A stretch of 64,000 bases of DNA, from positions 159,866-223,865 of the IMG/VR virus record IMGVR_UViG_3300028862_000012; one strand, 5' to 3'. The notes beneath the pieces are model-generated. The model had not been told where the DNA came from and did not search any database. It worked only from the letters and a program-made list of their open reading frames with translations. The stretch comes from a virus. This document shows positions 5,632-28,876 of the stretch, piece after piece; the first letter of the stretch is position 1, and every line of letters starts with the position of its first letter. The translations under genes and the position numbers were made by a program.

Positions 5632-5988
5632 ATGTCAATAATTATAGATGATACATTGTCTGGTAACTTAACATTTAATTTAGCAAGTGGCGAAGAAAAG
5701 TATATACAAGTTAACAGTAATATATATTCTTGTATTTTATCAACAAAGATGTTAGATAGTGGAGCAACATTTAGCTTAAAAAGTGCAATGGAATCTTCCG
5801 AATTTATAAAAGAAAATAATTTAGAAGCAAGTGATATTCAATGGGAGAATATAAAGATAGAAGGAATAGAATATACAGAGGTAACTGTAGATATACTTTC
5901 TATAACCTTTTTAAGTCCAAGTATTTTATATTTTAAAAATACTTCAGCAACTCAAATAATACGATTTTCTTTACGGGGGATTAGATAA
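5632..5988 (+). CDS. small beta-rich putative virion protein (118 aa)
   Basis: No family recognised. Predicted beta-rich with short repeats of Ser/Thr/Ile. Sits directly before the fibre gene, whose ATG overlaps its TAA, so it may be a head-tail or baseplate-fibre connector. This role is inferred from position only. Confidence 0.7.
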   Translation: MSIIIDDTLSGNLTFNLASGEEKYIQVNSNIYSCILSTKMLDSGATFSLKSAMESSEFIKENNLEASDIQWENIKIEGIEYTEVTVDILSITFLSPSILYFKNTSATQIIRFSLRGIR

Positions 5989-8150
5989 TGGGTGGAGTAT
6001 GGGATTTTACGAAAGGTGGATTATCGTTTCAGCAAGAGCAAGCAATAGCCTTAAATACATTTGTCCGTCATTCTCATACAAATAAGCTAATACTCGACAA
6101 TACTGAAGCTTCTTATACTTCTGCTGAAAAAATAAAATTAGGAAATTTAACAGACTCTTTTAAGGGTGTATTTAGTAATCAAGCATCAATAGTAGCGGCT
6201 TATCCCACACCATCTTCAGGATGGAGTGCTTGGAATTCAGCAACCAGTACAATATGGGCAGTAAGTAATTCCGCTTGGATAAATTCTGGAATAGCTTCTA
6301 TAGGTAATATGCTTCAAACTGTTTATGATCCTCAATCAATAGGTAAAGACTCATTTAGTAGAGCAAATCATACAGGTAGTCAATTAATTTCTACTATAAC
6401 AAACTTAGGAAGCGCAAGTGTTGATTCGTCAGGAAGCTTATCATTACCTTCTAATTTAACTGTTACATCAAAAATAACTTCTTCCAGTTTAGTTTCTTCA
6501 AATTTAATTTTAGGAAATGCTTCTACTTCAACACATACTTTGCACATACAGGGAATTAATAATGGTGTTGCTGGTATATATTTATCAGATGCCGTTCCTA
6601 GTAGTGTTAGTTATTCATTATATAATGATAGTGGCACTTTAAAATGGAATGGAACTGCTATAGGAATGGGATCAAGTATATCAGGTACAACCAGATATAT
6701 AGGTTTATTTACTGCCTCAAATGCTATTGGTGCTTCTGGTATATATCAAGATGCAAATAATAATATTGGTATTGGAACTATTACCCCCGGAGCAAAACTT
6801 GGTGTAAAAGTTGGTACAAATCAAGATTTTTCTGTTACGAGTACAAACGGAGTATTAAATTTACAATCTGTAAATGATGCATGGGACATATATAAACCTT
6901 TATATATTGATGGTAGCACCATTGCGTTTAATGCTAATGGTGGAGGGTATGTAGGAATTGGAACGACAAATCCCTTAGCCAGATTAAATATTAATGATGG
7001 TGGATCTTCCTCACTTTTACTTGGTGATAATGTTACCACTGGCAAATCAGCTTTTGCTATAAGTTTATCTTCTGCTACTAATGGTTATACTAGTTTACAA
7101 GCTATTTCTGCTGGTGGTTCTAGTTATGGAAATATCATACTTAATACCTTAGGAGGAAACGTCGGCATTGGAACAATTAGTCCTGATGCTAAACTTAGTG
7201 TGAATGGCAGTATATCAACAATGACTTCTGTTGCGGGTATTGCTGGATCACAAACTCTTGGTGATATAAACTTGGCTGTAGATACTGGTGATGCTGGACA
7301 TCGTACTCGTGTCTTTGCATTTAGTAATTCATCAGATTTAGTAGCATTTGGTTATATGGATACTATTACTGAATCAGGAGGAGCATCTTCTGTTGTGTTT
7401 GGTTCTGGATTTGGAGGTGCTGGAGACGTTCTTTATATTAATAACAAGAGTGGTAATGTTGGTATTGGAACAACGAGTCCTCCTTGTTCATTAACATTAG
7501 GTGATTCTTCTTGTGGAACATGGGATAGTAATTATAGAGTAATAGATCTACTTGGTTGTGGTACTATATTGGGAAGTCATAATAGTACTGGTTGGTCTGG
7601 AACAGGGTATGGCCAGACAGCTTGGGCAAACAATACATATTATAATGGAACAAGCAAAGCAATAGGTACTGGTGCTGCAAGTTCAATATTACAAGGTACA
7701 GGGCAAATTGAATTTCAAGTTGCTCCATCCGTGTCTGCTAGTGCTACTCAAACATTCATTTCTGCTATGCATATCAATAATTCTGGTTATGTAGGTATTG
7801 GAACAAATAGTCCATTACAGCCATTGCATGTAGCATGGGCCGATCAAAGTCACTCAAGAATAAGAATTCAAAACACCAATAGTGCTGATGGTGGAAGACC
7901 CTTTGAATTAGTAGCTGGGATTAATACCGTAAGTCAAAGTGGGTTTAGTATTTATGATGCCAGTGCTTTAGCAACAAGATTAGTTATAGATAATAATGGC
8001 AGAGTGGGGATTGGTACTATATCCCCCACTTCGCCCCTACAGGTCATAGGTGTTTCAGTATTCGCCGACAACGCCGCCGCAACCACCGGAGGCCTTACCG
8101 CCGGAGCCTTTTACCGGACATCGACTGGTCAGTTAATGTGTGTTTATTAA
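5988..8150 (+). CDS. tail fibre protein with VGIGT repeats
   Basis: A 720-residue trimeric-fibre-type protein. Six copies of the fibre repeat (V/I)GIGTxxP are visible between about residue 260 and 700, each followed by a short beta hairpin such as DAKLSV. The N-terminus should attach to the virion. The last 30 residues end in GLTAGAFYRTSTG, a C-terminal motif common in phage tail and fibre proteins. The DNA of this final block (about 8030-8130) is clearly GC-rich while the rest of the gene is AT-rich, which suggests that the tip was exchanged by recombination. The role is host recognition. Confidence 0.85.
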   Translation: MGGVWDFTKGGLSFQQEQAIALNTFVRHSHTNKLILDNTEASYTSAEKIKLGNLTDSFKGVFSNQASIVAAYPTPSSGWSAWNSATSTIWAVSNSAWINSGIASIGNMLQTVYDPQSIGKDSFSRANHTGSQLISTITNLGSASVDSSGSLSLPSNLTVTSKITSSSLVSSNLILGNASTSTHTLHIQGINNGVAGIYLSDAVPSSVSYSLYNDSGTLKWNGTAIGMGSSISGTTRYIGLFTASNAIGASGIYQDANNNIGIGTITPGAKLGVKVGTNQDFSVTSTNGVLNLQSVNDAWDIYKPLYIDGSTIAFNANGGGYVGIGTTNPLARLNINDGGSSSLLLGDNVTTGKSAFAISLSSATNGYTSLQAISAGGSSYGNIILNTLGGNVGIGTISPDAKLSVNGSISTMTSVAGIAGSQTLGDINLAVDTGDAGHRTRVFAFSNSSDLVAFGYMDTITESGGASSVVFGSGFGGAGDVLYINNKSGNVGIGTTSPPCSLTLGDSSCGTWDSNYRVIDLLGCGTILGSHNSTGWSGTGYGQTAWANNTYYNGTSKAIGTGAASSILQGTGQIEFQVAPSVSASATQTFISAMHINNSGYVGIGTNSPLQPLHVAWADQSHSRIRIQNTNSADGGRPFELVAGINTVSQSGFSIYDASALATRLVIDNNGRVGIGTISPTSPLQVIGVSVFADNAAATTGGLTAGAFYRTSTGQLMCVY

Positions 8151-11279: not shown

Positions 11280-11310
11280 TGTTAGTATAAAGTGTGATCT
11301 TATACTGAAC
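11254..11310. repeat. nested inverted repeats at left edge of type IV-B island
   Basis: ATACTAAC (11254-11261) is the exact reverse complement of GTTAGTAT (11281-11288). GTTAGTATAA (11281-11290) also pairs with TTATACTGAAC (11300-11310), with one extra G. Base composition changes from AT-rich to GC-rich across this site. AAC...GTT arms of this kind resemble integron attC-type recombination sites or an insertion scar, but this is inference. Confidence 0.4.
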
Positions 11311-11339
11311 AGTGGAATTTATGTTAGAACGACAAACAA

Positions 11340-11369
11340 CCGTGTACCGGCCTTGCGGCCACTACACGG
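11340..11369 (+). promoter_or_regulatory. strong GC hairpin in csf1 leader
   Basis: CCGTGTA/TACACGG (7 bp) and GGCC/GGCC (4 bp) stack around a TTGC loop with a small symmetric internal loop. It lies 30 bases before the proposed TTG start and just before the ribosome site. It may control translation of the operon or be an RNA partner of the complex. If an upstream ATG (11321) were the true start, this would be coding sequence. Confidence 0.5.
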
Positions 11370-11398
11370 ATAATTTGCGGGAAGAAAAGGAGGGAAGA

Positions 11399-12226
11399 TT
11401 GACAGCATCAGAATTATTTTCTGGGAATAAACATAATCACGGCGATCACAACTGCTATTACTGTGGTGCATCGTGTGATGAACAATATAAAACCGCTGAT
11501 TACGTAAAAGATACGTTTACCAATCGCGATATTGTGAAATATCCACAGTCGCAATTTGTTTGTGTCGGCTGCGTTGAATCTCTAGGGAATGGCGAAGACA
11601 AAATGCCGTTCATCGACGGGACGGTGAAAGTCAGAGAGAACGCGCGTGGTATGTGCCCGCGAATGTATTCGTGGATTTTATTTACAGATCATAAGCTCGC
11701 CGGAACAAAGGCCCATATAAAAGAATGGCGCGAGCTTTTAGCCAATCCTCCCGAACCGCCATTTGCAGTAATCCTTGCAGATTCCGGGCAGAAGCAGTTG
11801 ATATTCCGTGCACCTATCGCAATGAGTAAAAAGTGTTTTTCAATTCTTCTTGAAGATGAATGTATCGAAGTAATTCCCGAACAGCTTGCAGAACGCCTTG
11901 AAATGTGTACACCGATTTGCGCGGCTCTTGGCAAACCTGCACTGCAGGGAGAAATCTCTTTTTCATCTTATACCCGATATAACGAATATCATGGTGAAAT
12001 TGAAACTCTTGAAAAATGGTTGGCCATTCGTGACCAGCCTTTGTCGCGCCTTGCGGCGTGGTTATCGCTATCAAAGGAGAATGCACAGAATGAGTATGCA
12101 AGTATTGAGTGCGGAAAAGTTCCGGCAGGAACTCGCGGGACTAGTGGACAAAAGCCGGACGATTCCAGAAATGGAACTCGGAGTAATCAAGGATCAGGCG
12201 GTCAGGTTCTGCTCGATCTTGGCTGA
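11399..12226 (+). CDS. csf1: Csf1 (type IV-B large-subunit-like Cas8 protein)
   Basis: Large-subunit homologue of type IV CRISPR complexes. From the TTG start it reads TASELFSG, then a zinc-finger-like region with CYYCGASC (about residues 19-26) and CVGC (about 55-58), four cysteines as expected for Csf1, and ADYVKDTFT, a segment typical of the family. TTG at 11399 is chosen because AAAGGAGGGAAGA is placed ideally before it; in-frame upstream starts (GTG 11312, ATG 11321) lack such a site and would put a GC hairpin in the coding region. The last 46 codons overlap cas11 and look like out-of-frame sequence (Gly/Ser/Arg/Gln-rich), so csf1 may carry a small indel before an original stop near 12091. 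Confidence 0.8.
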   Translation: MTASELFSGNKHNHGDHNCYYCGASCDEQYKTADYVKDTFTNRDIVKYPQSQFVCVGCVESLGNGEDKMPFIDGTVKVRENARGMCPRMYSWILFTDHKLAGTKAHIKEWRELLANPPEPPFAVILADSGQKQLIFRAPIAMSKKCFSILLEDECIEVIPEQLAERLEMCTPICAALGKPALQGEISFSSYTRYNEYHGEIETLEKWLAIRDQPLSRLAAWLSLSKENAQNEYASIECGKVPAGTRGTSGQKPDDSRNGTRSNQGSGGQVLLDLG

Positions 12227-12578
12227 GGTGTTCGGCGAAGACCTTGACCGGAAAACTTTATGGGAGCGTATCGGAAACGGCCTTATTGTCGCAGCTGCAA
12301 AATGCGGCGGCGACTGGGAGCTGTTCGTCAATGAGATGCTCAAATACATTAAGGCAGAACCGGGAAAAGTAGCGGCGAATCGCGGGCTTGCGGCTTTCAT
12401 CGACGAGATGCTTGTTCGCCCGAAAGAATGGCAAGAGCAGTTTGTCCGCGAATGCGAGGCAAAGCATATGTTCATTTGCGTCAAAGCGCGGATGCTCTGG
12501 AACTCACGAAAAACACCACAGGACAATCCCGATGCAGAAGATCGTTTGACCGGAGGTGCAGAAAATGGAACTAATTAA
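12090..12578 (+). CDS. cas11: Cas11-like small subunit of type IV-B complex
   Basis: A 162-residue, mainly helical protein between csf1 and csf2, the position of the Cas11 small subunit in type IV-B operons. Small subunits line the backbone and stabilise guide or target RNA. The start ATG at 12090 follows AAAGGAG; a longer open frame from 11886 only runs inside csf1. The identification rests on position, length and helical content rather than a diagnostic motif. Confidence 0.65.
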   Translation: MSMQVLSAEKFRQELAGLVDKSRTIPEMELGVIKDQAVRFCSILAEVFGEDLDRKTLWERIGNGLIVAAAKCGGDWELFVNEMLKYIKAEPGKVAANRGLAAFIDEMLVRPKEWQEQFVRECEAKHMFICVKARMLWNSRKTPQDNPDAEDRLTGGAENGTN

Positions 12579-13521
12579 AAACTGCAAAATACATTGCCTT
12601 TCAACGGCATTATCTCCGATCACGCACATGATGGGAACCTCTGGGAATGAATCCGTCATCAACCGCGAATCAGTCCTGTTCAAAAATAAAATCAGACAGG
12701 TTCCGGTTCTGTCTGGCAACGCAATTCGTCACAAGATGATACGCGATCCAGGCGGCCTCTACCTTATCAAAGAGTGCGGACTTGTCGGGAAGCTGAACAT
12801 CGATCAAGCGAATTACCTACTGAATGGCGGTTCTCTGACAGAATCTTCGACAACGGAAAACCTTGGGCGTATTGCAGAAATGCAAACACTCATGCCGCTC
12901 ACCCGACTGCTCGGAGGATCACTACGAAATCAGGTTATCGGTGGATCTCTGTTTGTTCTTCGAGGGCTTTTGGTCTGCGAGGAAAACAGAAGCCAGATTC
13001 AGAAACAACTTCCAGAAGGCTACGAACTTCCTGAACAGGCATTGCGTTCGGCGGAAGATTTCATCGATCAATATCAGTACACCCGCGGAGATGCGCAAAA
13101 ACGGAACGACGCTGATCTTATGCTTGAAGAAAAATCCGATGACGTAAAATCAAATCTTATGATTTACAACGGACAGGATGTAATTCCCGGTTCTGTTTTC
13201 TATCATGGGTTCACCTTACAGAATATTTCACCGATCGAAGTAGGGGCATTGCTCCATTCGCTTATTCAGTGGGATGCAGCGGGCGGATTTATCGGAGGTC
13301 AATCACGCATAGGACATGGAAAACTCAAGATGTCGATTTTCTTCGAGGACGGAGACGACTTCATGGGAAATGAACTCAATCCGGCTGATATCGTGAAAAT
13401 GTATATCGACCACGTACACGCGAATGCAGAAAAAATTGCGCAATGGCTCGATGATACATTCCCGAACAAAGGGAAAAAAGCGGACGCGAAAAAACTTGCT
13501 GAAGGAGCGCTCGGCTTATGA
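12565..13521 (+). CDS. csf2: Csf2 (type IV Cas7-family backbone)
   Basis: A 318-residue RAMP protein forming the RNA-binding filament. Features include the N-terminal RAMP strand, VPVLSGNAIRHKMIRD (about 46-61), the conserved SGN.IR element of Csf2/Cas7, and a Gly-rich C-terminal loop GGFIGGQSRIGHG (about 248-260). The start ATG follows CCGGAGG and overlaps cas11 by 14 bases. In known type IV-B systems this protein assembles with Csf1, Csf3 and Cas11 around short RNA. Confidence 0.85.
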   Translation: MELIKNCKIHCLSTALSPITHMMGTSGNESVINRESVLFKNKIRQVPVLSGNAIRHKMIRDPGGLYLIKECGLVGKLNIDQANYLLNGGSLTESSTTENLGRIAEMQTLMPLTRLLGGSLRNQVIGGSLFVLRGLLVCEENRSQIQKQLPEGYELPEQALRSAEDFIDQYQYTRGDAQKRNDADLMLEEKSDDVKSNLMIYNGQDVIPGSVFYHGFTLQNISPIEVGALLHSLIQWDAAGGFIGGQSRIGHGKLKMSIFFEDGDDFMGNELNPADIVKMYIDHVHANAEKIAQWLDDTFPNKGKKADAKKLAEGALGL

Positions 13522-14198
13522 TAAAGAACTGGAAAGTCACCGCATGGCTTTCCAGCCCTTTGGCTGGAGAACCCCCACAGTTTGACGCAATACTCGGATG
13601 GGAACTTGCGCGTCGGCTTGGGTATAAACATTGCCGAAAGCTTACAAGAGATACGCCGTTGAGCGATATTCAAAATCCGCCGATCCCACTTGCGCAGCGT
13701 ACTATTTCAGGCGTTGACGTGTTCTGCTGTTCAGCGCCGATACTTCCCGAGCCTCATGATGAATGGGTTGAGAGAATATCAAAGCGGATTGACACCGACG
13801 AAATAGCCTTGCTTCTTGCGCCTGAGTTCCGCAAGTCTCTGCTTGTAGCATCTGGCCCGTATAAGATGCGGTATGTTCCTGAGCGGATTCGCCTTATTGA
13901 TTGCGTATGCTGGTTTGTACGTGGAGATAGAAAAGAAATACACAAGCTAGTAAAATCAGTCTATGCGATTGGGAAGCATCGTAATATTGGGTATGGTCAG
14001 GTTGAAGATTGGACGTTTGAAGAAACTGAAGAAGATTATTCCATCTCTGCATTACGTCAAGGCAAGCCGGTGCTTATGAAAATAATTCCGTTCGGAAGCG
14101 AATGTCAAAATATGACTGGATACAAACATTCTTTCGGCGCGGCGAATATGCCGTATTGGCATCCGGAGAATTATCGGGAGATTGCTTCTCCATGTTGA
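13518..14198 (+). CDS. csf3: Csf3 (type IV Cas5-family protein)
   Basis: A 226-residue RAMP protein translationally coupled to csf2 (ATGA). The N-terminus KVTAWLSSPLAGEPPQFDAI is typical of Csf3. A Gly-rich region GKHRNIGYGQVEDW (about 153-166) matches the RAMP glycine loop. Cas5-type subunits cap the 5' end of the guide RNA. The C-terminus ends with a PYWHPENY segment. Confidence 0.85.
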   Translation: MIKNWKVTAWLSSPLAGEPPQFDAILGWELARRLGYKHCRKLTRDTPLSDIQNPPIPLAQRTISGVDVFCCSAPILPEPHDEWVERISKRIDTDEIALLLAPEFRKSLLVASGPYKMRYVPERIRLIDCVCWFVRGDRKEIHKLVKSVYAIGKHRNIGYGQVEDWTFEETEEDYSISALRQGKPVLMKIIPFGSECQNMTGYKHSFGAANMPYWHPENYREIASPC

Positions 14199-14479
14199 TT
14201 GACAAGAAGATAATATTTAGAGCCGGGACGGATACGAAAGAATTATATTTATGTGTTGCGGCTCTAAATAAATATCTTGTAGAAAACGAGATAAGATCAA
14301 ACGATAGAGAACGGACATACAACGTCCACAACAACACGAAAGAAATATACATACGTGAGAGAAGTAAAAGTATTTTTGTGAGGTATAAAAAATTAAAAGA
14401 ACCGAAAGCGCGAGCGCGAAAAGATAAACAGTTAACGAGAGAAACTACAAACAGTACATATGGAGATGGTAGGTGTTAA
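14192..14479 (+). CDS. unknown basic protein between csf3 and cysH (95 aa)
   Basis: The open frame extends upstream to an ATG at 14102 inside csf3, but the ATG at 14192 overlaps the csf3 stop closely and is preferred. The product is basic, with a Lys/Arg-rich C-terminus (KARARKDKQ), which would suit RNA or DNA binding. No known type IV-B subunit fits. Composition becomes AT-richer here, suggesting a separate origin from csf1-csf3. Confidence 0.55.
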   Translation: MLIDKKIIFRAGTDTKELYLCVAALNKYLVENEIRSNDRERTYNVHNNTKEIYIRERSKSIFVRYKKLKEPKARARKDKQLTRETTNSTYGDGRC

Positions 14480-15168
14480 TAATAACAGATCGTCATACAG
14501 AAAAAGATTTGAAACTTTGGAAAGAGTATAAGGAGATTGATAAAATATCAACATACTCTGAAAAGAAAATAGAGCTTGCAAAAAAATCTATCAATGAGTT
14601 TTCATGTAAACATATTGATACTGTTATATATACGTCATGGGGAAAGGATTCGATTATTCTTCTTCATCTTGTCGCGCTAATGGAATTAAAATATCCGGTT
14701 GTATATGTACGTTTTAATGACCGCGATAATCCAGATTGTGAATTAGTTCGCGATGCGTTTCTGAAGAAATACAATATTGATTATCACGAGGAATATTTTG
14801 ATTATAAACGCGTTCGTGCAAAAGATTTGCACTGGAAAGAAACGGCTAATAAATATGGGCATCATAGAATTACCGGAATAAGAAACGATGAATCAGGGCG
14901 TCGATTATTGAACTGGAAAAAATACGGCTTCTTTTCAGAAAATACTTGTCGCCCATTATCATTGCTTACAAACAAAGAAGTATTCGCATATATTTATCAT
15001 AATGATTTACCGCTATGCCCTGTATATGGATACCTCGGAGGTGGAAGATGGCCACGTGAAAACATACGAACTCATTCACTCGCAGGTTCAAGTGCGGATG
15101 GTTTCGGACGAACGGAATGGGAGTTCGAATATTATCCTGATATTTTGAACAGAATTAAGAGTTTCTAA
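14473..15168 (+). CDS. cysH: CysH-like PAPS reductase-family protein of type IV-B
   Basis: A 231-residue PP-loop protein. The nucleotide loop is YTSWGKDSI (about 54-62, the SxGKDS pattern). GIRNDESGRR (about 137-146) and CRPLSLLTNKE (about 160-170) follow as in adenylyl- or phosphoadenylyl-sulfate reductases and DndC relatives. A cysH-like gene is a known accessory of array-less type IV-B loci; its role is unproven. The start is GTG, overlapping the previous stop. The stop TAA lies inside the downstream inverted repeat. Confidence 0.85.
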   Translation: MLIITDRHTEKDLKLWKEYKEIDKISTYSEKKIELAKKSINEFSCKHIDTVIYTSWGKDSIILLHLVALMELKYPVVYVRFNDRDNPDCELVRDAFLKKYNIDYHEEYFDYKRVRAKDLHWKETANKYGHHRITGIRNDESGRRLLNWKKYGFFSENTCRPLSLLTNKEVFAYIYHNDLPLCPVYGYLGGGRWPRENIRTHSLAGSSADGFGRTEWEFEYYPDILNRIKSF

Positions 15169-15221
15169 TAACTGGTTCCACCTGACAATCTTGCGGATTG
15201 CAGGTGAACCAAGTGTTAGGT
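15166..15221. repeat. attC-like structured inverted repeat after cysH
   Basis: TAATAAC (15166-15172, containing the cysH stop) faces GTTAGGT (15215-15221). Between them TGGTT/AACCA, CACCTG/CAGGTG and CAATC/GATTG form a hairpin with a TTGCG loop and two single-base bulges (C15178, A15185) on the same arm. Length 56 bases, position on the stop codon, AAC/GTT ends and one-sided bulges all resemble integron attC sites. No T tract follows, so it is not a simple terminator. Confidence 0.45.
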
Positions 15222-15227
15222 TGACGC

Positions 15228-15265
15228 TCAATCCATATAGCGCCAGTAGCTGCTATATGGATTGA
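15228..15265. repeat. 14-bp perfect inverted repeat
   Basis: TCAATCCATATAGC (15228-15241) and GCTATATGGATTGA (15252-15265) are exact reverse complements with a 10-base loop. It lies between the cysH-side hairpin and the terminator. Possibly a protein-binding site or part of a recombination site. Confidence 0.6.
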
Positions 15266-15267
15266 CC

Positions 15268-15307
15268 GCAAAAAAGAGCGAAAAAGTGCATTTTTCTGCC
15301 TTTTTTT
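15268..15307. terminator. A-tract/T-tract hairpin terminator
   Basis: Two A tracts (15270-15275 and 15281-15285) face two T tracts (15291-15295 and 15301-15307), giving a long AT stem with a GTGCA loop and ending in T7. It would terminate the type IV-B transcript before the promoter at 15319, and may work in both directions. Confidence 0.6.
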
Positions 15308-15318
15308 ACATTATTTAG

Positions 15319-15356
15319 TTGACATAATATCTTGATTGTAGTATGCTTTAATCAAG
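15319..15356 (+). promoter_or_regulatory. sigma70 promoter with palindromic operator
   Basis: TTGACA (15319-15324), 17-bp spacer, TATGCT (15342-15347). CTTGATT (15331-15337) and AATCAAG (15350-15356) form a perfect inverted repeat that spans the -10 box. A repressor bound here would block the promoter. The downstream RHH-like protein is a natural candidate for autoregulation, as in Aca-controlled anti-CRISPR promoters. Confidence 0.7.
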
Positions 15357-15419: not shown

Positions 15420-15692
15420 ATGAAGCACGGAAAACTTACCAGAGAACAGGCTATCGAAATCGCAGGATCAGAGATCGTCAAAAAGCTCGATTATGTTAAC
15501 TGCGAACCCACAAGCCGGTTACAGTGCGACGGCGACGACTCAACCGAGTACACCGCATCACTCAAGACCGCCAACGGCGAAACGCTTATTGCCTACTACT
15601 ACACAACACCCGAGCAAGAGCAGACAATTGCAGACGCAGACGCAGATGGTTCGGCGATAGACTGGGAAATCAACGGATACGAGGTTATTTGA
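15420..15692 (+). CDS. small acidic protein, anti-CRISPR-like position (90 aa)
   Basis: No family recognised. Acidic, with a helical N-terminus (LTREQAIEIAG), a central beta part and an Asp-rich stretch. It is the first gene after a strong operator-bearing promoter and is followed at once by a DNA-binding-type gene (stop and start share TGATG). That is the usual layout of acr-aca pairs. No good ribosome site is seen. Calling it an anti-CRISPR is a guess from context only. Confidence 0.65.
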   Translation: MKHGKLTREQAIEIAGSEIVKKLDYVNCEPTSRLQCDGDDSTEYTASLKTANGETLIAYYYTTPEQEQTIADADADGSAIDWEINGYEVI

Positions 15693-15874
15693 TGCAACAC
15701 GGCGGCAAGCGAAATGGGGCGGGCCGCCGCCCTATTTTTGAAAAAACAAAGCTGACCCAAATACGGGTAAATCAGGAAATCTGGGACGCTATCCCGGCAC
15801 CAAAAGCGGCATGGGTTAGGGAAGCGATTGAAGAAAAAGCGAAAAAAAAGAACCTAACAACTGCCTTAACCTGA
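15692..15874 (+). CDS. putative ribbon-helix-helix regulator (60 aa)
   Basis: Short basic protein. HGGKRNGAGRRP is a Gly/Arg-rich arm, followed by LTQIRVNQEIWDAI and a helix WVREAIEEKAKK, a strand-helix-helix pattern as in ribbon-helix-helix DNA-binding proteins. Probably binds the inverted repeat over its own promoter. The longer open frame starting at 15524 is only a shadow of the previous gene. An A8 run near the end makes the exact C-terminus uncertain. Confidence 0.65.
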   Translation: MQHGGKRNGAGRRPIFEKTKLTQIRVNQEIWDAIPAPKAAWVREAIEEKAKKKNLTTALT

Positions 15875-15882
15875 TGTTAATT
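15852..15882. repeat. right edge of island, ACCTAAC...GTTAATT
   Basis: ACCTAAC (15852-15858) is the exact reverse complement of GTTAGGT at 15215-15221, the end of the attC-like site. GTTAATT follows at 15876. Composition returns to AT-rich phage DNA here. In integron cassettes the left box of a cassette's own attC pairs with the cassette's first bases, which is what is seen. The inner part is too short for a classical attC. Confidence 0.35.
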
Positions 15883-15920
15883 TAGAAGACGATTTAAAAG
15901 ATTTGAAAGGAGTAAATTCA

Positions 15921-19799: not shown

Positions 19800-20011
19800 A
19801 TAAAACAATATATGAGCAGTTTGATGAAGCATTTAGACATCATATGAGTTCTAAACTTGAAAGAAAAGGTCAAGCTACTTTTAATGCAGTTATGACAATT
19901 GATCCGGTACTTGCAGATAGTTTGCGCGGAACAAATATAGACTGCTATTATTTTGATGGAAAAATTAATGATTTTATGAGTGTAGTATATAATAAGTGGA
20001 GTAGTTTGTGA
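19796..20011 (+). CDS. hypothetical protein (71 aa)
   Basis: No family recognised. Coupled at both ends: ATGA with the previous gene, and GTGA with the GTG start of the next. Confidence 0.7.
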   Translation: MNKTIYEQFDEAFRHHMSSKLERKGQATFNAVMTIDPVLADSLRGTNIDCYYFDGKINDFMSVVYNKWSSL

Positions 20012-20577
20012 AACAGGACAGAAGCTATCTATGTGATGAAAAGTGTAATGAGTGTATACTATTACAATCACCTAATAGTAGAATGGTTACTGAAGTTTTG
20101 AATGAACTGTATAATAAGTTTGGTAATGGGGTATATGAAATAGTAGAAAAAAATTGCCCTAATCTTACTTGTTGCTATGATTGTCATATAGATGATTTTT
20201 GTCATGTTAAAGGATGTAAAATTATTAAGGAGAATAAAATGAACATTGAAGAAGGTAAAGAATATTTTTATATAAATATAAGTTGTTCAGAAATTGATTA
20301 TATTATTCAAAAAGTAAAAATACAAAAAATAATAAGTAACTATGTAACTTGTTATGATGTAGAGGATAAAGCTAAAGATAATATGTGTATTTTTACTGAT
20401 GAATCATTTTTCTCTGAAAAGTATTCAGAAGCTCATACCTATCTTATTAACGAACTTAAAAAATATGAAGAGAATGAAATGGAAATAGTAAGAAATAACA
20501 TAAAAGATACTATTGAAAAATCAAATAAAGCTTGTCAAAAGTATTTTAAGGAAGAATATGGACGAAGACATAATTAG
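20008..20577 (+). CDS. Cys-rich protein with possible internal second gene (189 aa)
   Basis: Starts with GTG overlapping the previous stop. Residues 1-75 are Cys-rich (CDEKCNEC, CPNLTCCYDC, CHVKGC), suggesting metal binding. An AAGGAG site followed by ATG at 20239 lies in frame, so the C-terminal 113 residues could also be made alone. It may be two genes fused in frame after loss of a stop. Confidence 0.65.
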   Translation: MKQDRSYLCDEKCNECILLQSPNSRMVTEVLNELYNKFGNGVYEIVEKNCPNLTCCYDCHIDDFCHVKGCKIIKENKMNIEEGKEYFYINISCSEIDYIIQKVKIQKIISNYVTCYDVEDKAKDNMCIFTDESFFSEKYSEAHTYLINELKKYEENEMEIVRNNIKDTIEKSNKACQKYFKEEYGRRHN

Positions 20578-20719
20578 AGACTATATAGAGAAAAATATTA
20601 AAATACAGATTAATGAATATTACTCAATGAATTGTAAGCATGGATTAAGTGTAAGTTTAGTTCTTAATAGTAAAGAAGTTTCAGAAGATCATATTATGAT
20701 AGAAGGGTATAATGAATAA
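20558..20719 (+). CDS. hypothetical protein (53 aa)
   Basis: ATG at 20558 after AAGGAAG, overlapping the previous gene by 20 bases; an upstream in-frame start is inside that gene. No family recognised. Confidence 0.65.
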   Translation: MDEDIIRDYIEKNIKIQINEYYSMNCKHGLSVSLVLNSKEVSEDHIMIEGYNE

Positions 20720-20930
20720 AGAATATGAGGATATATTTAATAATAGACTTATGGAATTAGAAAAAGAAAAAACAAGTCTTGTTGTCGATATAGATACTTA
20801 TGAAAATACAGGTGGAAAAGGTATAGAATTAATGTCCGAATATCATAATACTATGATAAAGTATTGGATGCTTTGTGAAAGAATAAGTGAATTAAATAGA
20901 TTAAGATATCTTATAGAAAGGGATTACTAA
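20712..20930 (+). CDS. hypothetical helical protein (72 aa)
   Basis: Likely coiled coil throughout (ERISELNRLRYLIER). Overlaps the previous gene by 8 bases. No family recognised. Confidence 0.65.
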   Translation: MNKEYEDIFNNRLMELEKEKTSLVVDIDTYENTGGKGIELMSEYHNTMIKYWMLCERISELNRLRYLIERDY

Positions 20931-20933
20931 TAA

Positions 20934-21347
20934 ATGAATATAACACCTGAAAGAATAACAGAACTAAAACCAAAGGAAGTGTTCTGCTTCGGCTCAAATG
21001 AAAAAGGTCGCCACGGACTTGGTGCCGCTAAATTAGCTTATAATGAATTTGGTGCAGTATGGGGTAAAGGGTTTGGATTGTTTGGTCAAAGTTTTGCCAT
21101 TCCTACAAAAGACGAGAATATTGAAACACTTCCTTTAGATAAGATACAAACATATATTCAAGCTTTTGAAGTACAAGTAATAAATCATCCTACTCTAATT
21201 TTTTATGTTACTCAAATTGGATGTGGCTATGCAGGATATACACCAAAAGATATAGCACCTTTATTTAAAAGTTGTTATCAATTACCTAATGTATATATGC
21301 CAGAAAGTTTTTGGGAAATATATAAAAAGGTAAATCATGAACTTTGA
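20934..21347 (+). CDS. macro-like phage protein (A1S_2505-type)
   Basis: A 137-residue protein with FCFGSNEKGRHGLGAAKLA (about 18-36) and VTQIGCGYAGY (about 91-101), the conserved pattern of a widespread phage protein annotated as A1S_2505-family non-structural protein. The GxGAA and IGCGxAG elements resemble the ADP-ribose-binding loops of macro domains. It may remove or bind ADP-ribose-type modifications, but that is inference. Confidence 0.75.
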   Translation: MNITPERITELKPKEVFCFGSNEKGRHGLGAAKLAYNEFGAVWGKGFGLFGQSFAIPTKDENIETLPLDKIQTYIQAFEVQVINHPTLIFYVTQIGCGYAGYTPKDIAPLFKSCYQLPNVYMPESFWEIYKKVNHEL

Positions 21348-21660
21348 AACATTTTTATTTATAATAAAGAATACTTTTAGGTGTAAAATAATTTGTTATT
21401 CTGACAATACTGCTATTATTATCTATAATAATAAAAAATATAAGTTTAAGTATTATAATAATTTTATTAATTGTATAGATGCAGATGCTTTTTTAAATAG
21501 TTGTACTTGTAGTTATGATTGTAACCTCGAATATATTTCAGAGTTATCAATTATTGATTATTTTATTTCTATAGTAAAAGCTAATAATAATCTATTTGAA
21601 TTTTCATACAAAGAATCAGGAGTAAAAAAGTTATGGAATACATTGACAAAGAAGTATTAA
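21337..21660 (+). CDS. hypothetical protein (107 aa)
   Basis: No family recognised. Tyr/Asn/Ile-rich, with CTCSYDC in the middle. Starts inside the end of the previous gene. Confidence 0.65.
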   Translation: MNFETFLFIIKNTFRCKIICYSDNTAIIIYNNKKYKFKYYNNFINCIDADAFLNSCTCSYDCNLEYISELSIIDYFISIVKANNNLFEFSYKESGVKKLWNTLTKKY

Positions 21661-21842
21661 AAAACATGCTTACTTGTGGTAATTGTTATGGTGTTCATTG
21701 TGGTGTAACCGATGAGTCTACATGTCCTGCATATGATTATAATGAATCATGTAATGTAGATATTGATGATTGCAAGTTAACTGATATAGCAATAGCCAAA
21801 ATTAGAACTTATATTGAAACACAGGATGATACTAATGAATAA
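21633..21842 (+). CDS. Cys-rich protein (69 aa)
   Basis: CGNCYGVHC, CPAYD and CNVDIDDC give seven or more cysteines, likely a metal-binding knuckle. Ribosome site CAGGAG. Overlaps the previous gene by 28 bases. Confidence 0.65.
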   Translation: MEYIDKEVLKNMLTCGNCYGVHCGVTDESTCPAYDYNESCNVDIDDCKLTDIAIAKIRTYIETQDDTNE

Positions 21843-22191
21843 TAAATTTAAGATCGGAGATAATGTAAAGATACGAAAGACTTGCGCCTTTCATGGTGGA
21901 GAAATTACTAAAGTAACAGAAGTTTTTACTAAAAGTGTATGTCTTGAAATAGACAACGGATTGTTTGAATTTCCAAAAGAAGGATTAATAAAGATAGGTT
22001 TTAATTATTATTTACCTGTAATAAATAAATATTTGTATTCTATCGCTTTATATGGACTTATGGCTTATTTCTTTATAACCTGCTCACCAAATGATCTATT
22101 ATTCTTTTCAGGAATAGTTTATAGCTCTATAGTAGTTTGGTGCGAAGATACTATTTTTAGTAAGCTTAAATGTTTTAAGAAAGAGGAATAA
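21835..22191 (+). CDS. membrane protein with N-terminal SH3-like domain (118 aa)
   Basis: ATG at 21835 is preferred over 21814. Residues 5-55 (KIGDNVKIRK...EVF) look like a small beta-barrel. Two membrane segments follow (about 65-85 and 90-105). No family recognised. Confidence 0.65.
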   Translation: MNNKFKIGDNVKIRKTCAFHGGEITKVTEVFTKSVCLEIDNGLFEFPKEGLIKIGFNYYLPVINKYLYSIALYGLMAYFFITCSPNDLLFFSGIVYSSIVVWCEDTIFSKLKCFKKEE

Positions 22192-22192
22192 A

Positions 22193-22705
22193 ATGCTTAG
22201 ACCTGCTATATCTTATAAAGCTGAACTAGATAAAATAAATATTGAATTAATGGAAAAAGAAGAAATATATAAATATTTTATTAGTGCAGATTATTGGTAC
22301 AAGTTATTCGTTATAGATGAAACAGAGTATAATCAGATATCACGAGTAAGTGTTGATAGTGATGGAAAAGTAATTGGATATATTGGTGTATCCTTAAATA
22401 AAGCTATTAATTCTGTAAATCATATGTATGTTTGCTATTTTAAAATGCCTAAAATTAGTTATACTTTTACAAAAGATGTTTTAGAATTTATTGATTATTT
22501 ATTTGTATATAAAAAGTTTAATAAAATACATTGGAGTGTATATATCGGAAATCCGGCTATAAAGGTTTACAATAAGTTCATTGAGCGCTATAATGGAAAG
22601 ATAGTTGGATATTTTAAAGACGATGAAAGACTACTAGATAACTCCATTGTGGATAAACAAGTATATGAAATTATACGTGAAGACTATTTAAAAGCAAAGG
22701 AATAA
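22193..22705 (+). CDS. GNAT-like acetyltransferase
   Basis: A 170-residue protein with the GNAT order: strand SRVSVDSDGKVIGYIGVSL, then a helix region with FNKIHWSVYIGNPAIKVYNKF, matching the C-terminal motif in which the Asn-x-A-x-x-x-Y segment binds acetyl-CoA. The target is unknown. Confidence 0.6.
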   Translation: MLRPAISYKAELDKINIELMEKEEIYKYFISADYWYKLFVIDETEYNQISRVSVDSDGKVIGYIGVSLNKAINSVNHMYVCYFKMPKISYTFTKDVLEFIDYLFVYKKFNKIHWSVYIGNPAIKVYNKFIERYNGKIVGYFKDDERLLDNSIVDKQVYEIIREDYLKAKE

Positions 22706-26707: not shown

Positions 26708-28876
26708 ATGTCTTCAAATATAATTGTACCTCATGGAAATCTGGACTCAAAACAATTAGCTAATCTTGTAGATCAAAGCTATGATCTTTTGCAAGGTGAT
26801 ATGGATGTCGCTTTACTGGATGATTTTAGTCAAGCAGATATACTTGAATTAAAGAAAGCATTAAGTGTATTAGCAAATAATCCTAATTTTTCTAATGACC
26901 AAATTTCTAATCTTTTATCTGAAAGCTGGAGAATGCTTTATTATCAAAAGCCTCCTACTATTGAAGAGTTTTTATCTCCTGAATGGTTAGGCGCGACAAG
27001 TGATACTATTCGTCCTCATATACGTGAATGGTTATGTGAATGGTATAATCCAGAAAAAGGATATAGACACTGTTATTTAAGTACAGCTATTGGTATGGGT
27101 AAAAGTTATTTTTCGGTTTTGAATAGTTTGTTTGCAGGAACTAATATAGCATTGATGCGTAATCCTTGGAAAACAATGAGTTCTATATTAGGAGAAGCGT
27201 CACCTATAGCAATTATTTTCGTAAGCTATAGTATTGATAAAGTAACAGAAATATTAATAGAACCATTCAAACAATTTTTAATGACATCAGAATCAAGCTC
27301 AAAGCCTAAGTTTAAAAAATGTAAAACAATTGAGGGTATGAATAAATTTGCAACTGAACATAAGGGTGCAATTATTCCTTGGACTACAGCAGGAGAAACA
27401 AATATATTGACTATTGGTAATCCATTAAATACAGCAAATATAAATTTAAAAGTTGCAAGTGATCCTGCTAGATTATTAGGCTTAACTTTAGTACAAACTA
27501 TATTTACAGAATTAAGTTTCTTCTTGGATAAAGGAAAATCTCCACAATACATTGACAGATTATTTAAAGACGGAGCCGGGAGAATTTTGAGTCGCTTTCC
27601 AAATCAAGAACAGCAAAAATATAAAGATAAAGATAATAATATATTTTCTCCATCAACTACTTTTTGGGCGCGAGACATTATGGATAGCTCTCCTAATAGT
27701 TGGGATAGTCCAATTGATAAATATATTTATAGTGGTGAAGCAGATCGTAATCCAGAAAACTTAATATTCCGTGGTAGTGCTTGGGACATAATGCCAAACA
27801 GTGTACCTAATATAGAAGATAGATTTCCTGTATTTGTTGGTGGAAGCTCTAAAGAACCTCGCATAATAGATGAGTCTGAAATAAAAAACTTTTCTTTAGA
27901 AGAAGTTTTAATGGTTCCAAAGTTTTTCTATAATAAGTTTTATGAAAATATTTGTAAGTCATTAAAAGATATAGCAGGTATTCCTTCTAATGCACAAGGA
28001 AGATTAATAGAGAATATAGAACATATAGAAAATATATTTGTAGGTAATCTACGCAATCAATATAGTTATATCACCGCGCCAAGTAGTAGTATACCAGAGC
28101 GATTAATATGGGATCAAATAAAAAATGAGTTCTTTATTTATGTAAAAGATCACTATGAATTTTATAGAAATAATAATACACCTCGATATATTTCTATTGA
28201 CCAAAGTTATAAAAAAGATACTACTGGTATTAGTATGTGTCATATGGAAGTAAATGAACATGGTGACATTATCTATATTCTGGATTTTACTATAGCAATA
28301 GAACCAAAAGGAAGCAAGATTAATCTTGAAAGTATAAAATGTTTTATAGAAGATTTAGTTACCTTAGGTGGAATAAAAGTAGTAATGGTTAGCTATGATC
28401 ACTTCCAGTCAGAGCAATCAATACAAAGTTTAGAGCGTGTAGGAATACCTGTAAAGCACATATCAGTTGATACAGATATGTCACCATATTTAAATATGGT
28501 TAGCTTAATGGCTCAAGGCAGAATAAAAAGTGGTAAAAATATTTATTTAAAAAATAATTTAAAATCACTTATTCGTTCTGAAACTAAAGTAGCAAAGAAG
28601 CCAAAGATCGATCATATAATTGGTGAAGTTACTGATGAAGCAAATACTAATTGGGATACCTCTACTTTAGGTAAGTATGCAAAGGATATTTCAGATAGCG
28701 CAAGCGCAAGCATTAGTATTGCTATGCGCTTTGGTGAGTATACTGATGGTTTATGGGTATGGAAAGACAGTGAAAGCAAATGCGAACTAAAGGAAGTACT
28801 TGTTAATAAAGCTAAAGATGATTTATTAAAAATGGGAATACGTATACGTCCAGCAAGTCATTTATCCTTTTCGTGA
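26708..28876 (+). CDS. terL: terminase large subunit
   Basis: A 722-residue packaging motor. The ATPase part has STAIGMGKSYFS (about 125-136), a Walker A loop, and a Walker B-like IFTELSFF (about 266-273). The nuclease part has YISIDQSYKKDTTG (about 496-509), the first catalytic Asp of the RNase H-like fold, and VSYDHF (about 561-566). It cuts and packages DNA into proheads. It is isolated between leftward genes; no small subunit was recognised. Confidence 0.85.
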   Translation: MSSNIIVPHGNLDSKQLANLVDQSYDLLQGDMDVALLDDFSQADILELKKALSVLANNPNFSNDQISNLLSESWRMLYYQKPPTIEEFLSPEWLGATSDTIRPHIREWLCEWYNPEKGYRHCYLSTAIGMGKSYFSVLNSLFAGTNIALMRNPWKTMSSILGEASPIAIIFVSYSIDKVTEILIEPFKQFLMTSESSSKPKFKKCKTIEGMNKFATEHKGAIIPWTTAGETNILTIGNPLNTANINLKVASDPARLLGLTLVQTIFTELSFFLDKGKSPQYIDRLFKDGAGRILSRFPNQEQQKYKDKDNNIFSPSTTFWARDIMDSSPNSWDSPIDKYIYSGEADRNPENLIFRGSAWDIMPNSVPNIEDRFPVFVGGSSKEPRIIDESEIKNFSLEEVLMVPKFFYNKFYENICKSLKDIAGIPSNAQGRLIENIEHIENIFVGNLRNQYSYITAPSSSIPERLIWDQIKNEFFIYVKDHYEFYRNNNTPRYISIDQSYKKDTTGISMCHMEVNEHGDIIYILDFTIAIEPKGSKINLESIKCFIEDLVTLGGIKVVMVSYDHFQSEQSIQSLERVGIPVKHISVDTDMSPYLNMVSLMAQGRIKSGKNIYLKNNLKSLIRSETKVAKKPKIDHIIGEVTDEANTNWDTSTLGKYAKDISDSASASISIAMRFGEYTDGLWVWKDSESKCELKEVLVNKAKDDLLKMGIRIRPASHLSFS

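What the first reader, a model, noticed from the sequence alone, without database searches (positions are those of the whole stretch)
11281..15221. Array-less type IV-B CRISPR-Cas operon carried by a phage genome
csf1, cas11, csf2, csf3 and a cysH-like gene are in the canonical type IV-B order, all open and coupled. There is no csf4/dinG, no csf5/cas6 and no array. The host genome has a terminase and tail genes, so the system is in phage (or phage-like) DNA rather than a plasmid. The block is more GC-rich than both flanks. Type IV-B function is unresolved; a phage copy suggests a use against rival elements or host defences.
Basis: partly seen in the sequence, partly recalled or inferred. Interest (0 to 1): 0.92.

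Follow-up and report, generated by a model that had tools for sequence, protein, structure and literature searches.

The report
Phage-carried type IV-B CRISPR operon
A large bacterial virus carries an intact set of CRISPR-type RNA-binding genes (type IV-B) with no guide array of its own; it is one of about eighty such sets I found in virus contigs, and several relatives carry a guide-RNA-cutting enzyme in the middle of the operon, which hints that the viruses load the machine with their host's guide RNAs.

Summary
csf1, cas11, csf2, csf3 and a cysH-like gene lie in IV-B order at 11399-15168 of a 223,865-bp phage record. All are open and coupled; the four genes tested show strong purifying selection. 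I found no array, DinG, Cas1 or Cas6 in the record. Csf2 matches the solved IV-B Csf2, the Csf1 model folds like type IV Csf1, and CysH is a PP-loop ATPase. Virus-borne IV-B is not new in kind: Fuxivirus is published, and Skermania phage SPI1 has one unannotated. What is new here is scale and anatomy. About 80 IMG/VR contigs carry the operon, in mostly unrelated surroundings. The csf3-cysH junction is a cargo slot: empty in 31 of 74 loci, occupied in 38 by unrelated genes. Occupants include SpoU RNA methylases, DNA methylases, HTH proteins and IbrAB-like pairs. Three are clear and two weak Cas6 enzymes, with no array on those contigs. That favours loading with host crRNA (sponge or scavenger), but this is inferred. 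The window's copy looks like a recent import: it alone, of 51 loci, exceeds its flanks by more than 0.1 in GC.

The parts
11399..12226 (+). csf1 (type IV large subunit, Zn-finger; TTG start, 275 aa)
   Evidence: PADLOC typeIV_Cas8 2.5e-74; AF2 model's only significant PDB fold matches are type IV-A Csf1 (8rc3_G 1.6e-5, 7xg1_A 2.4e-5); start from SD site and L002 homolog; CxxC motifs conserved
12090..12578 (+). cas11 (type IV small subunit, 162 aa; overlaps csf1 by 137 nt)
   Evidence: PADLOC typeIV_Cas11 1.1e-40; start and SD
12565..13521 (+). csf2 (Cas7-like RNA-binding backbone, 318 aa)
   Evidence: PADLOC typeIV_Cas7 1.1e-95; profile matches PDB 7jhy IV-B Csf2 6.1e-6, no IV-A Csf2 listed to E=10
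13518..14198 (+). csf3 (Cas5-like, 226 aa)
   Evidence: PADLOC typeIV_Cas5 2.8e-38
14192..14479 (+). ORFx, slot gene between csf3 and cysH (95 aa, basic C-terminus, no known family)
   Evidence: overlaps csf3 stop (CCATGTTGA) and cysH start; no significant Pfam or PADLOC match; the same position holds different genes in relatives
14473..15168 (+). cysH-like PP-loop ATPase (CasCysH, 231 aa, GTG start)
   Evidence: PAPS_reduct 4.8e-10; SWGKDS invariant in the 11-locus alignment; AF2 pLDDT 87, folds like CysD, PAPS reductase, TtuA, TilS
15165..15310 (+). strong hairpins ending in a T-run, probable operon terminator
   Evidence: RNA fold z = -8.4 against shuffles over 15160-15330; nature inferred
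15420..15902 (+). downstream high-GC ORFs (15420-15692, 15524-15874), possibly the end of the imported segment
   Evidence: GC 0.46-0.51 against about 0.30 beyond; no Pfam match; membership in the import is inferred

Best explanation
An intact type IV-B CRISPR-Cas effector operon, recently acquired by a large tailed phage and carried as cargo. Shown: the identity, order, coupling and constraint of the genes; no array or adaptation genes found in the record; the same operon in about 80 other virus contigs. Inferred mechanism: Csf2 and Cas11 polymerise on small RNAs that the phage does not encode, capped by Csf3 and Csf1. In the infected cell the likeliest load is host crRNA (or other small guides). 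The RNP withdraws host guides and so blunts host RNA-guided defence, and perhaps reuses them against co-infecting elements. CasCysH, a predicted ATP-alpha-hydrolysing PP-loop enzyme without the reductase cysteine motif, would adenylate or otherwise modify the bound RNA or its target. The slot gene is lineage-specific help, in some relatives a Cas6 that could cut host pre-crRNA.
For: IV-B identity. Constraint against L002: dN/dS 0.11 (csf1), 0.05 (csf2), 0.03 (csf3), 0.05 (cysH) (dS near saturation). Csf2-CysH distance correlation r=0.50 against permutation maximum 0.19; Csf2-Csf3 0.88: co-inheritance, CysH looser. No array in the record, in the related loci, or in the whole contigs with Cas6-like slot genes (L101's 8.4-kb contig included). 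Slot Cas6: L052 8.3e-30, L076 3.4e-31, L101 5.9e-9; weak L031 1.6e-4, L099 8.1e-5, in different Cas6 families and, where placed, different tree branches. CysH PP-loop invariant, AMP-forming fold relatives. Published IV-B filament binds heterogeneous ~55-60 nt RNA (PMC7937560).
Against: In the only biochemistry (PMC7937560) IV-B did not enrich co-expressed I-E crRNAs, which weakens crRNA specificity. The window's own copy has no Cas6. Slot genes are mostly not Cas6, so the slot may be a general cargo site. Nothing here measures RNA binding, expression or anti-CRISPR activity. The host of this phage and its CRISPR content are unknown.
Confidence: 0.4

Rival explanations
1. Inter-element weapon: the IV-B RNP uses host-derived (or trans-encoded) crRNAs as working guides to silence rival phages or plasmids, as plasmid IV-A does, rather than simply titrating them.
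For: Setting and gene set fit the published inter-MGE conflict role of type IV (PMC11656645); Cas6 captured without an array would allow use of host arrays in trans.
Against: No DinG-type helicase domain in the record; no effector nuclease in the operon; no spacers to show targets.
Confidence: 0.25
2. RNA-modification machine: Csf2/Cas11 present RNA to CasCysH and to slot enzymes (SpoU methylase, radical SAM), changing tRNA or other host RNA; not guide-based.
For: CasCysH folds like the tRNA-modifying PP-loop enzymes TtuA and TilS as well as CysD; SpoU-like genes in the slot of four loci, radical SAM after csf3 in two; reference IV-B binds heterogeneous RNA (PMC7937560).
Against: Most slots hold other kinds of gene, including DNA methylases, HTH and Cas6; SpoU is absent from most loci; no substrate known.
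Confidence: 0.15
3. Passenger: a recently imported cassette from a higher-GC relative that is not yet or not at all useful to this phage.
For: The only one of 51 loci with operon GC more than 0.1 above its flanks (0.439 against 0.309).
Against: All frames open and coupled, SD sites before four of the genes; strong purifying selection since the split from L002; recurrence in about 80 phage contigs.
Confidence: 0.1
4. Assembly chimera of plasmid and phage DNA.
For: Sharp GC contrast with the flanks.
Against: L002 (87% Csf2 identity) has the operon between terS-like and terL genes; 26 of 40 sibling records carry terminase or portal; the window's Csf2 falls in a phage-contig group apart from the sampled plasmid copies.
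Confidence: 0.03

Closest known systems
Type IV-B CRISPR-Cas of Mycobacterium sp. JS623 plasmid (PDB 7JHY; PMC7937560)
   Same: Csf1, Cas11, Csf2, Csf3; profile match to its Csf2 (6.1e-6)
   Different: Plasmid-borne; here in a phage, with an extra slot gene between csf3 and cysH
Type IV-B of Bathyarchaeia Fuxiviridae (PMC10848311)
   Same: Virus-encoded IV-B with CysH-like gene, no adaptation module
   Different: Archaeal virus with a mini-array of two repeats and one spacer; none found here
Skermania phage SPI1 orf42-44 (KR011061), annotated hypothetical
   Same: Isolated tailed phage with csf2-csf3-cysH in order
   Different: Csf2 only 23% identical; csf3 and cysH directly joined, no slot gene; orf40-41 as csf1 and cas11 rest on position only
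Type IV-A CRISPR-Cas (DinG, Csf5/Cas6, array)
   Same: Homologous Csf1 and Csf2-Csf3 core; Csf1 fold match
   Different: No DinG-type domain, Cas6 or array found in the record; has cas11 and cysH-like gene

Membership tests
Type IV-B CRISPR-Cas | csf1, csf2, csf3 core genes of type IV | tested here: met
   PADLOC 2.5e-74, 1.1e-95, 2.8e-38. NCBIfam equivalogs TIGR03114-6 hit below their cut-offs, so it is divergent from those models
Type IV-B CRISPR-Cas | cas11 small-subunit gene with the core genes | tested here: met
   PADLOC typeIV_Cas11 1.1e-40, between csf1 and csf2
Type IV-B CRISPR-Cas | adjacent cysH-like gene with PP-loop, lacking the reductase catalytic cysteine | tested here: met
   PAPS_reduct 4.8e-10; SWGKDS invariant; no C-terminal ECGLH-type motif by eye in the alignment
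Type IV-B CRISPR-Cas | no array, no Cas6, no adaptation module, no DinG | tested here: met
   No array; PF01867, PF10040, PF13307 absent from the record. Cas6e model PF08798 was not run on this record; the record may be incomplete
Type IV-B CRISPR-Cas | Csf2 groups with IV-B rather than IV-A Csf2 | tested here: met
   PDB profile search: IV-B Csf2 7jhy 6.1e-6, no IV-A Csf2 chain listed up to E=10; no tree with IV-A references was made
Type IV-B CRISPR-Cas | forms an RNA-bound Csf2-Cas11 filament | not testable with these tools
   needs purification
Type IV-A CRISPR-Cas | dinG, csf5/cas6 and array | tested here: not met
   none found
Tailed phage (Caudoviricetes) carrier | terminase, tail and replication genes on the same record | tested here: met
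   TerL (PHROG 2.2e-6; tblastn to named TerL 1e-28), sheath, baseplate wedge, DNA polymerase, ligase

The most novel reading that the evidence does not exclude
Phage-borne IV-B is a widespread, modular counter-defence or guide-piracy machine. The csf3-cysH junction is an exchangeable slot whose occupant adapts the RNP to the host, and where it is a captured Cas6 of the host's type (I-E-like Cas6e, other Cas6 families) the phage processes and loads the host's own crRNAs, although it has no array.
Probability: 0.3. Interest if true: 0.87.

Novelty: new member of a known kind. Interest (0 to 1): 0.6.

Why it matters
IV-B is among the least understood CRISPR subtypes: usually no array, no nuclease, and an unexplained CysH-like partner. 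About 80 phage-borne copies, and a slot that sometimes holds Cas6, turn the function question into a testable one in phage-host pairs: does the complex carry host crRNAs during infection, and does it protect the phage? It also shifts the usual picture of IV-B as mainly a plasmid system.

Tried and rejected
Close relatives in sequenced cellular genomes: the first scan with three phage Csf2 found none; a wider profile found only two termite-gut Spirochaetota MAG contigs, so the host is at best hinted. CysH against isolated phages: no match. Flanking phage genes shared between loci: only csf and cysH families cluster in more than three loci, so no conserved neighbourhood. Terminase on the Treponema locus L017: not found there. 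CRISPR-like repeats: the only hits were low-complexity or tandem repeats, for example 81-bp units at L007:4561. Rfam: nothing in the window; the only matches in the 140 kb of the rest searched were tRNAs. Repeats bounding the cassette: only a weak 21-nt pair at RBS/start sites, 76%, rejected as a boundary. ORFx: no family found. The primary surveys of type IV (for example gkz1197) are not held, so novelty claims are limited to the papers read.

Full report
OBSERVATION. The window is bases 159,866-223,865 of a 223,865-bp IMG/VR virus record, linear and without terminal repeats. Profile searches give Csf1, Cas11, Csf2 and Csf3 of type IV at E 2.5e-74, 1.1e-40, 1.1e-95 and 2.8e-38, and a PAPS-reductase domain for the fifth named gene, 4.8e-10. 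Genes and overlaps: csf1 11399-12226 (TTG after AAGGAGGG), cas11 12090-12578, csf2 12565-13521, csf3 13518-14198, ORFx 14192-14479, cysH 14473-15168. It begins inside the end of csf3 (CCATGTTGA) and ends inside the cysH start.

SUBTYPE. A profile of five phage Csf2 proteins finds the solved IV-B Csf2 (7jhy, 6.1e-6); no IV-A Csf2 chain is listed up to E=10. The AF2 model of Csf1 (pLDDT 81) has only two significant PDB fold matches, chains of type IV-A complexes that I take to be Csf1. The CysH model (pLDDT 87) folds like CysD, PAPS reductase, TtuA and TilS; its PP-loop SWGKDS is invariant in an 11-locus alignment. I found no array in the record, and no Cas1, Cas6 (PF10040) or DinG-type C-terminal helicase domain. 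The features that define IV-B are met.

CARRIER. The record encodes TerL (window 26708-28876), a tail fibre (5988-8150), tail sheath, baseplate wedge, DNA polymerase, NAD ligase and anaerobic NrdD: a large contractile-tailed phage. csf1-csf3 are 0.46-0.51 GC, ORFx and cysH 0.35, and the phage about 0.29. Among 51 IV-B loci with flanks, this is the only one whose operon exceeds its flanks by more than 0.1 (0.439 against 0.309); across loci, operon and flank GC correlate at 0.96. I read this as recent import from a higher-GC relative. Against L002, dN/dS is 0.03-0.11 for csf1, csf2, csf3 and cysH (synonymous sites near saturation).

RELATIVES. Scans of IMG/VR with growing alignments and HMMs built from them give 85 distinct loci, including the window, Skermania phage SPI1 and two Spirochaetota MAG contigs; four of these show only cysH at a contig end. 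Among the first 17 loci, only the csf genes and cysH cluster in more than three loci, so the cassette sits in mostly unrelated surroundings. Of 40 sampled virus records, 26 carry a terminase or portal by three Pfam families (union). A Csf2 tree places the window with L002, L003 and L028 (96/89) within a large group of virus contigs, apart from the four plasmid Csf2 sampled; several long branches make deep placement unsure. In 50,697 isolated-phage records only SPI1 has a Csf2 relative.

THE SLOT. In 74 loci with both csf3 and cysH, 31 have them joined or within 47 bp, 5 have cysH upstream, and 38 have 178-3,474 bp between them with one to five ORFs, usually starting at or near the csf3 stop. 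Weak csf3 hits in distant loci make some of these gaps approximate. Contents by profile: SpoU RNA methylase (L021 1.8e-7, L022 9.3e-7; L023 and L040 by similarity), HTH proteins (L002, L014, L026), an IbrA-like PAPS_reduct/DUF3440 with ParB-like partner (L016, four more by similarity), DNA methylases (L119 3.9e-9, L087 1.1e-20), HD (L039), cupin (L082) and others. Cas6 is clear in L052 (8.3e-30), L076 (3.4e-31) and L101 (5.9e-9), weak in L031 (1.6e-4) and L099 (8.1e-5). These fit different Cas6 families and lie on different branches where placed, which suggests separate captures. Full contigs of L052, L076, L031 and L099, and the L101 contig, show no array. Radical SAM genes follow csf3 in L028 and L019, where no intact cysH was found.

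MECHANISM. Shown: identity, anatomy, constraint, co-inheritance of CysH with Csf2 (r=0.50 against permutation maximum 0.19), absence of a detectable array, occasional Cas6. Inferred: the RNP is loaded with RNA it does not encode, most plausibly host crRNA, withdrawing or reusing host guides, with CasCysH acting on the bound RNA or its target. The sponge and nucleic-acid-modification ideas are published (PMC7937560, PMC8175902); the Cas6-without-array slots are independent support for loading on host guides. Against it, the one purified IV-B complex did not enrich co-expressed I-E crRNAs (PMC7937560). The choice between sponge, weapon and RNA-modification models is open.

NOVELTY. Virus-borne IV-B is published for Bathyarchaeia Fuxiviridae (PMC10848311), and type IV in some phages and prophages is noted in review (PMC11656645). 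The window is therefore a new member of a known kind. The csf3-cysH slot and its Cas6 occupants were not described in the passages I could read; one paper states that IV-B lacks a crRNA-processing enzyme (PMC8175902). The primary surveys were not available, so this is a limited claim.

Noticed in passing
L013 (Skermania phage SPI1, KR011061) 19986-22485: csf2, csf3 and cysH of a IV-B operon in an isolated phage, annotated as hypothetical proteins; orf40-41 in front may be csf1 and cas11.
   Followed up: partly
csf3-cysH junction in L016, L051, L054, L058, L097: IbrA-like (PAPS_reduct/DUF3440) and ParB-like pair inserted between csf3 and cysH, so two PP-loop proteins in one operon.
   Followed up: partly
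csf3-cysH junction in L021, L022, L023, L040: SpoU/TrmH-like RNA methylase gene inserted between csf3 and cysH.
   Followed up: partly
window 15165-15310: Very stable hairpins after cysH (z -8.4), followed by a promoter-like TTGACA-N17-TATGCT; probable terminator, but a structured RNA is not excluded.
   Followed up: partly
L005:5860-8262 (-): 800-aa protein with a PurZ/adenylosuccinate-synthetase-like region (PHROG 1211, 2.3e-46); possible nucleotide-modifying role in the phage.
   Followed up: no
L005:9682-15269 (-): Cluster of 10 predicted tRNA genes, one with a four-base anticodon call (aatt).
   Followed up: no
L009:14898-17126 (+): Anaerobic ribonucleotide reductase NrdD (2.3e-117), hinting at an anaerobic host.
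   Followed up: no
L007:4561-4737: 81-bp tandem repeat, three or more copies; not CRISPR-like (unit conserved over most of its length).
   Followed up: partly
L017, L018 (termite-gut Treponema and Spirochaetaceae MAG contigs): Closest IV-B Csf2 in assembled cellular genomes (63% and 60%); possible prophage or host hint.
   Followed up: partly
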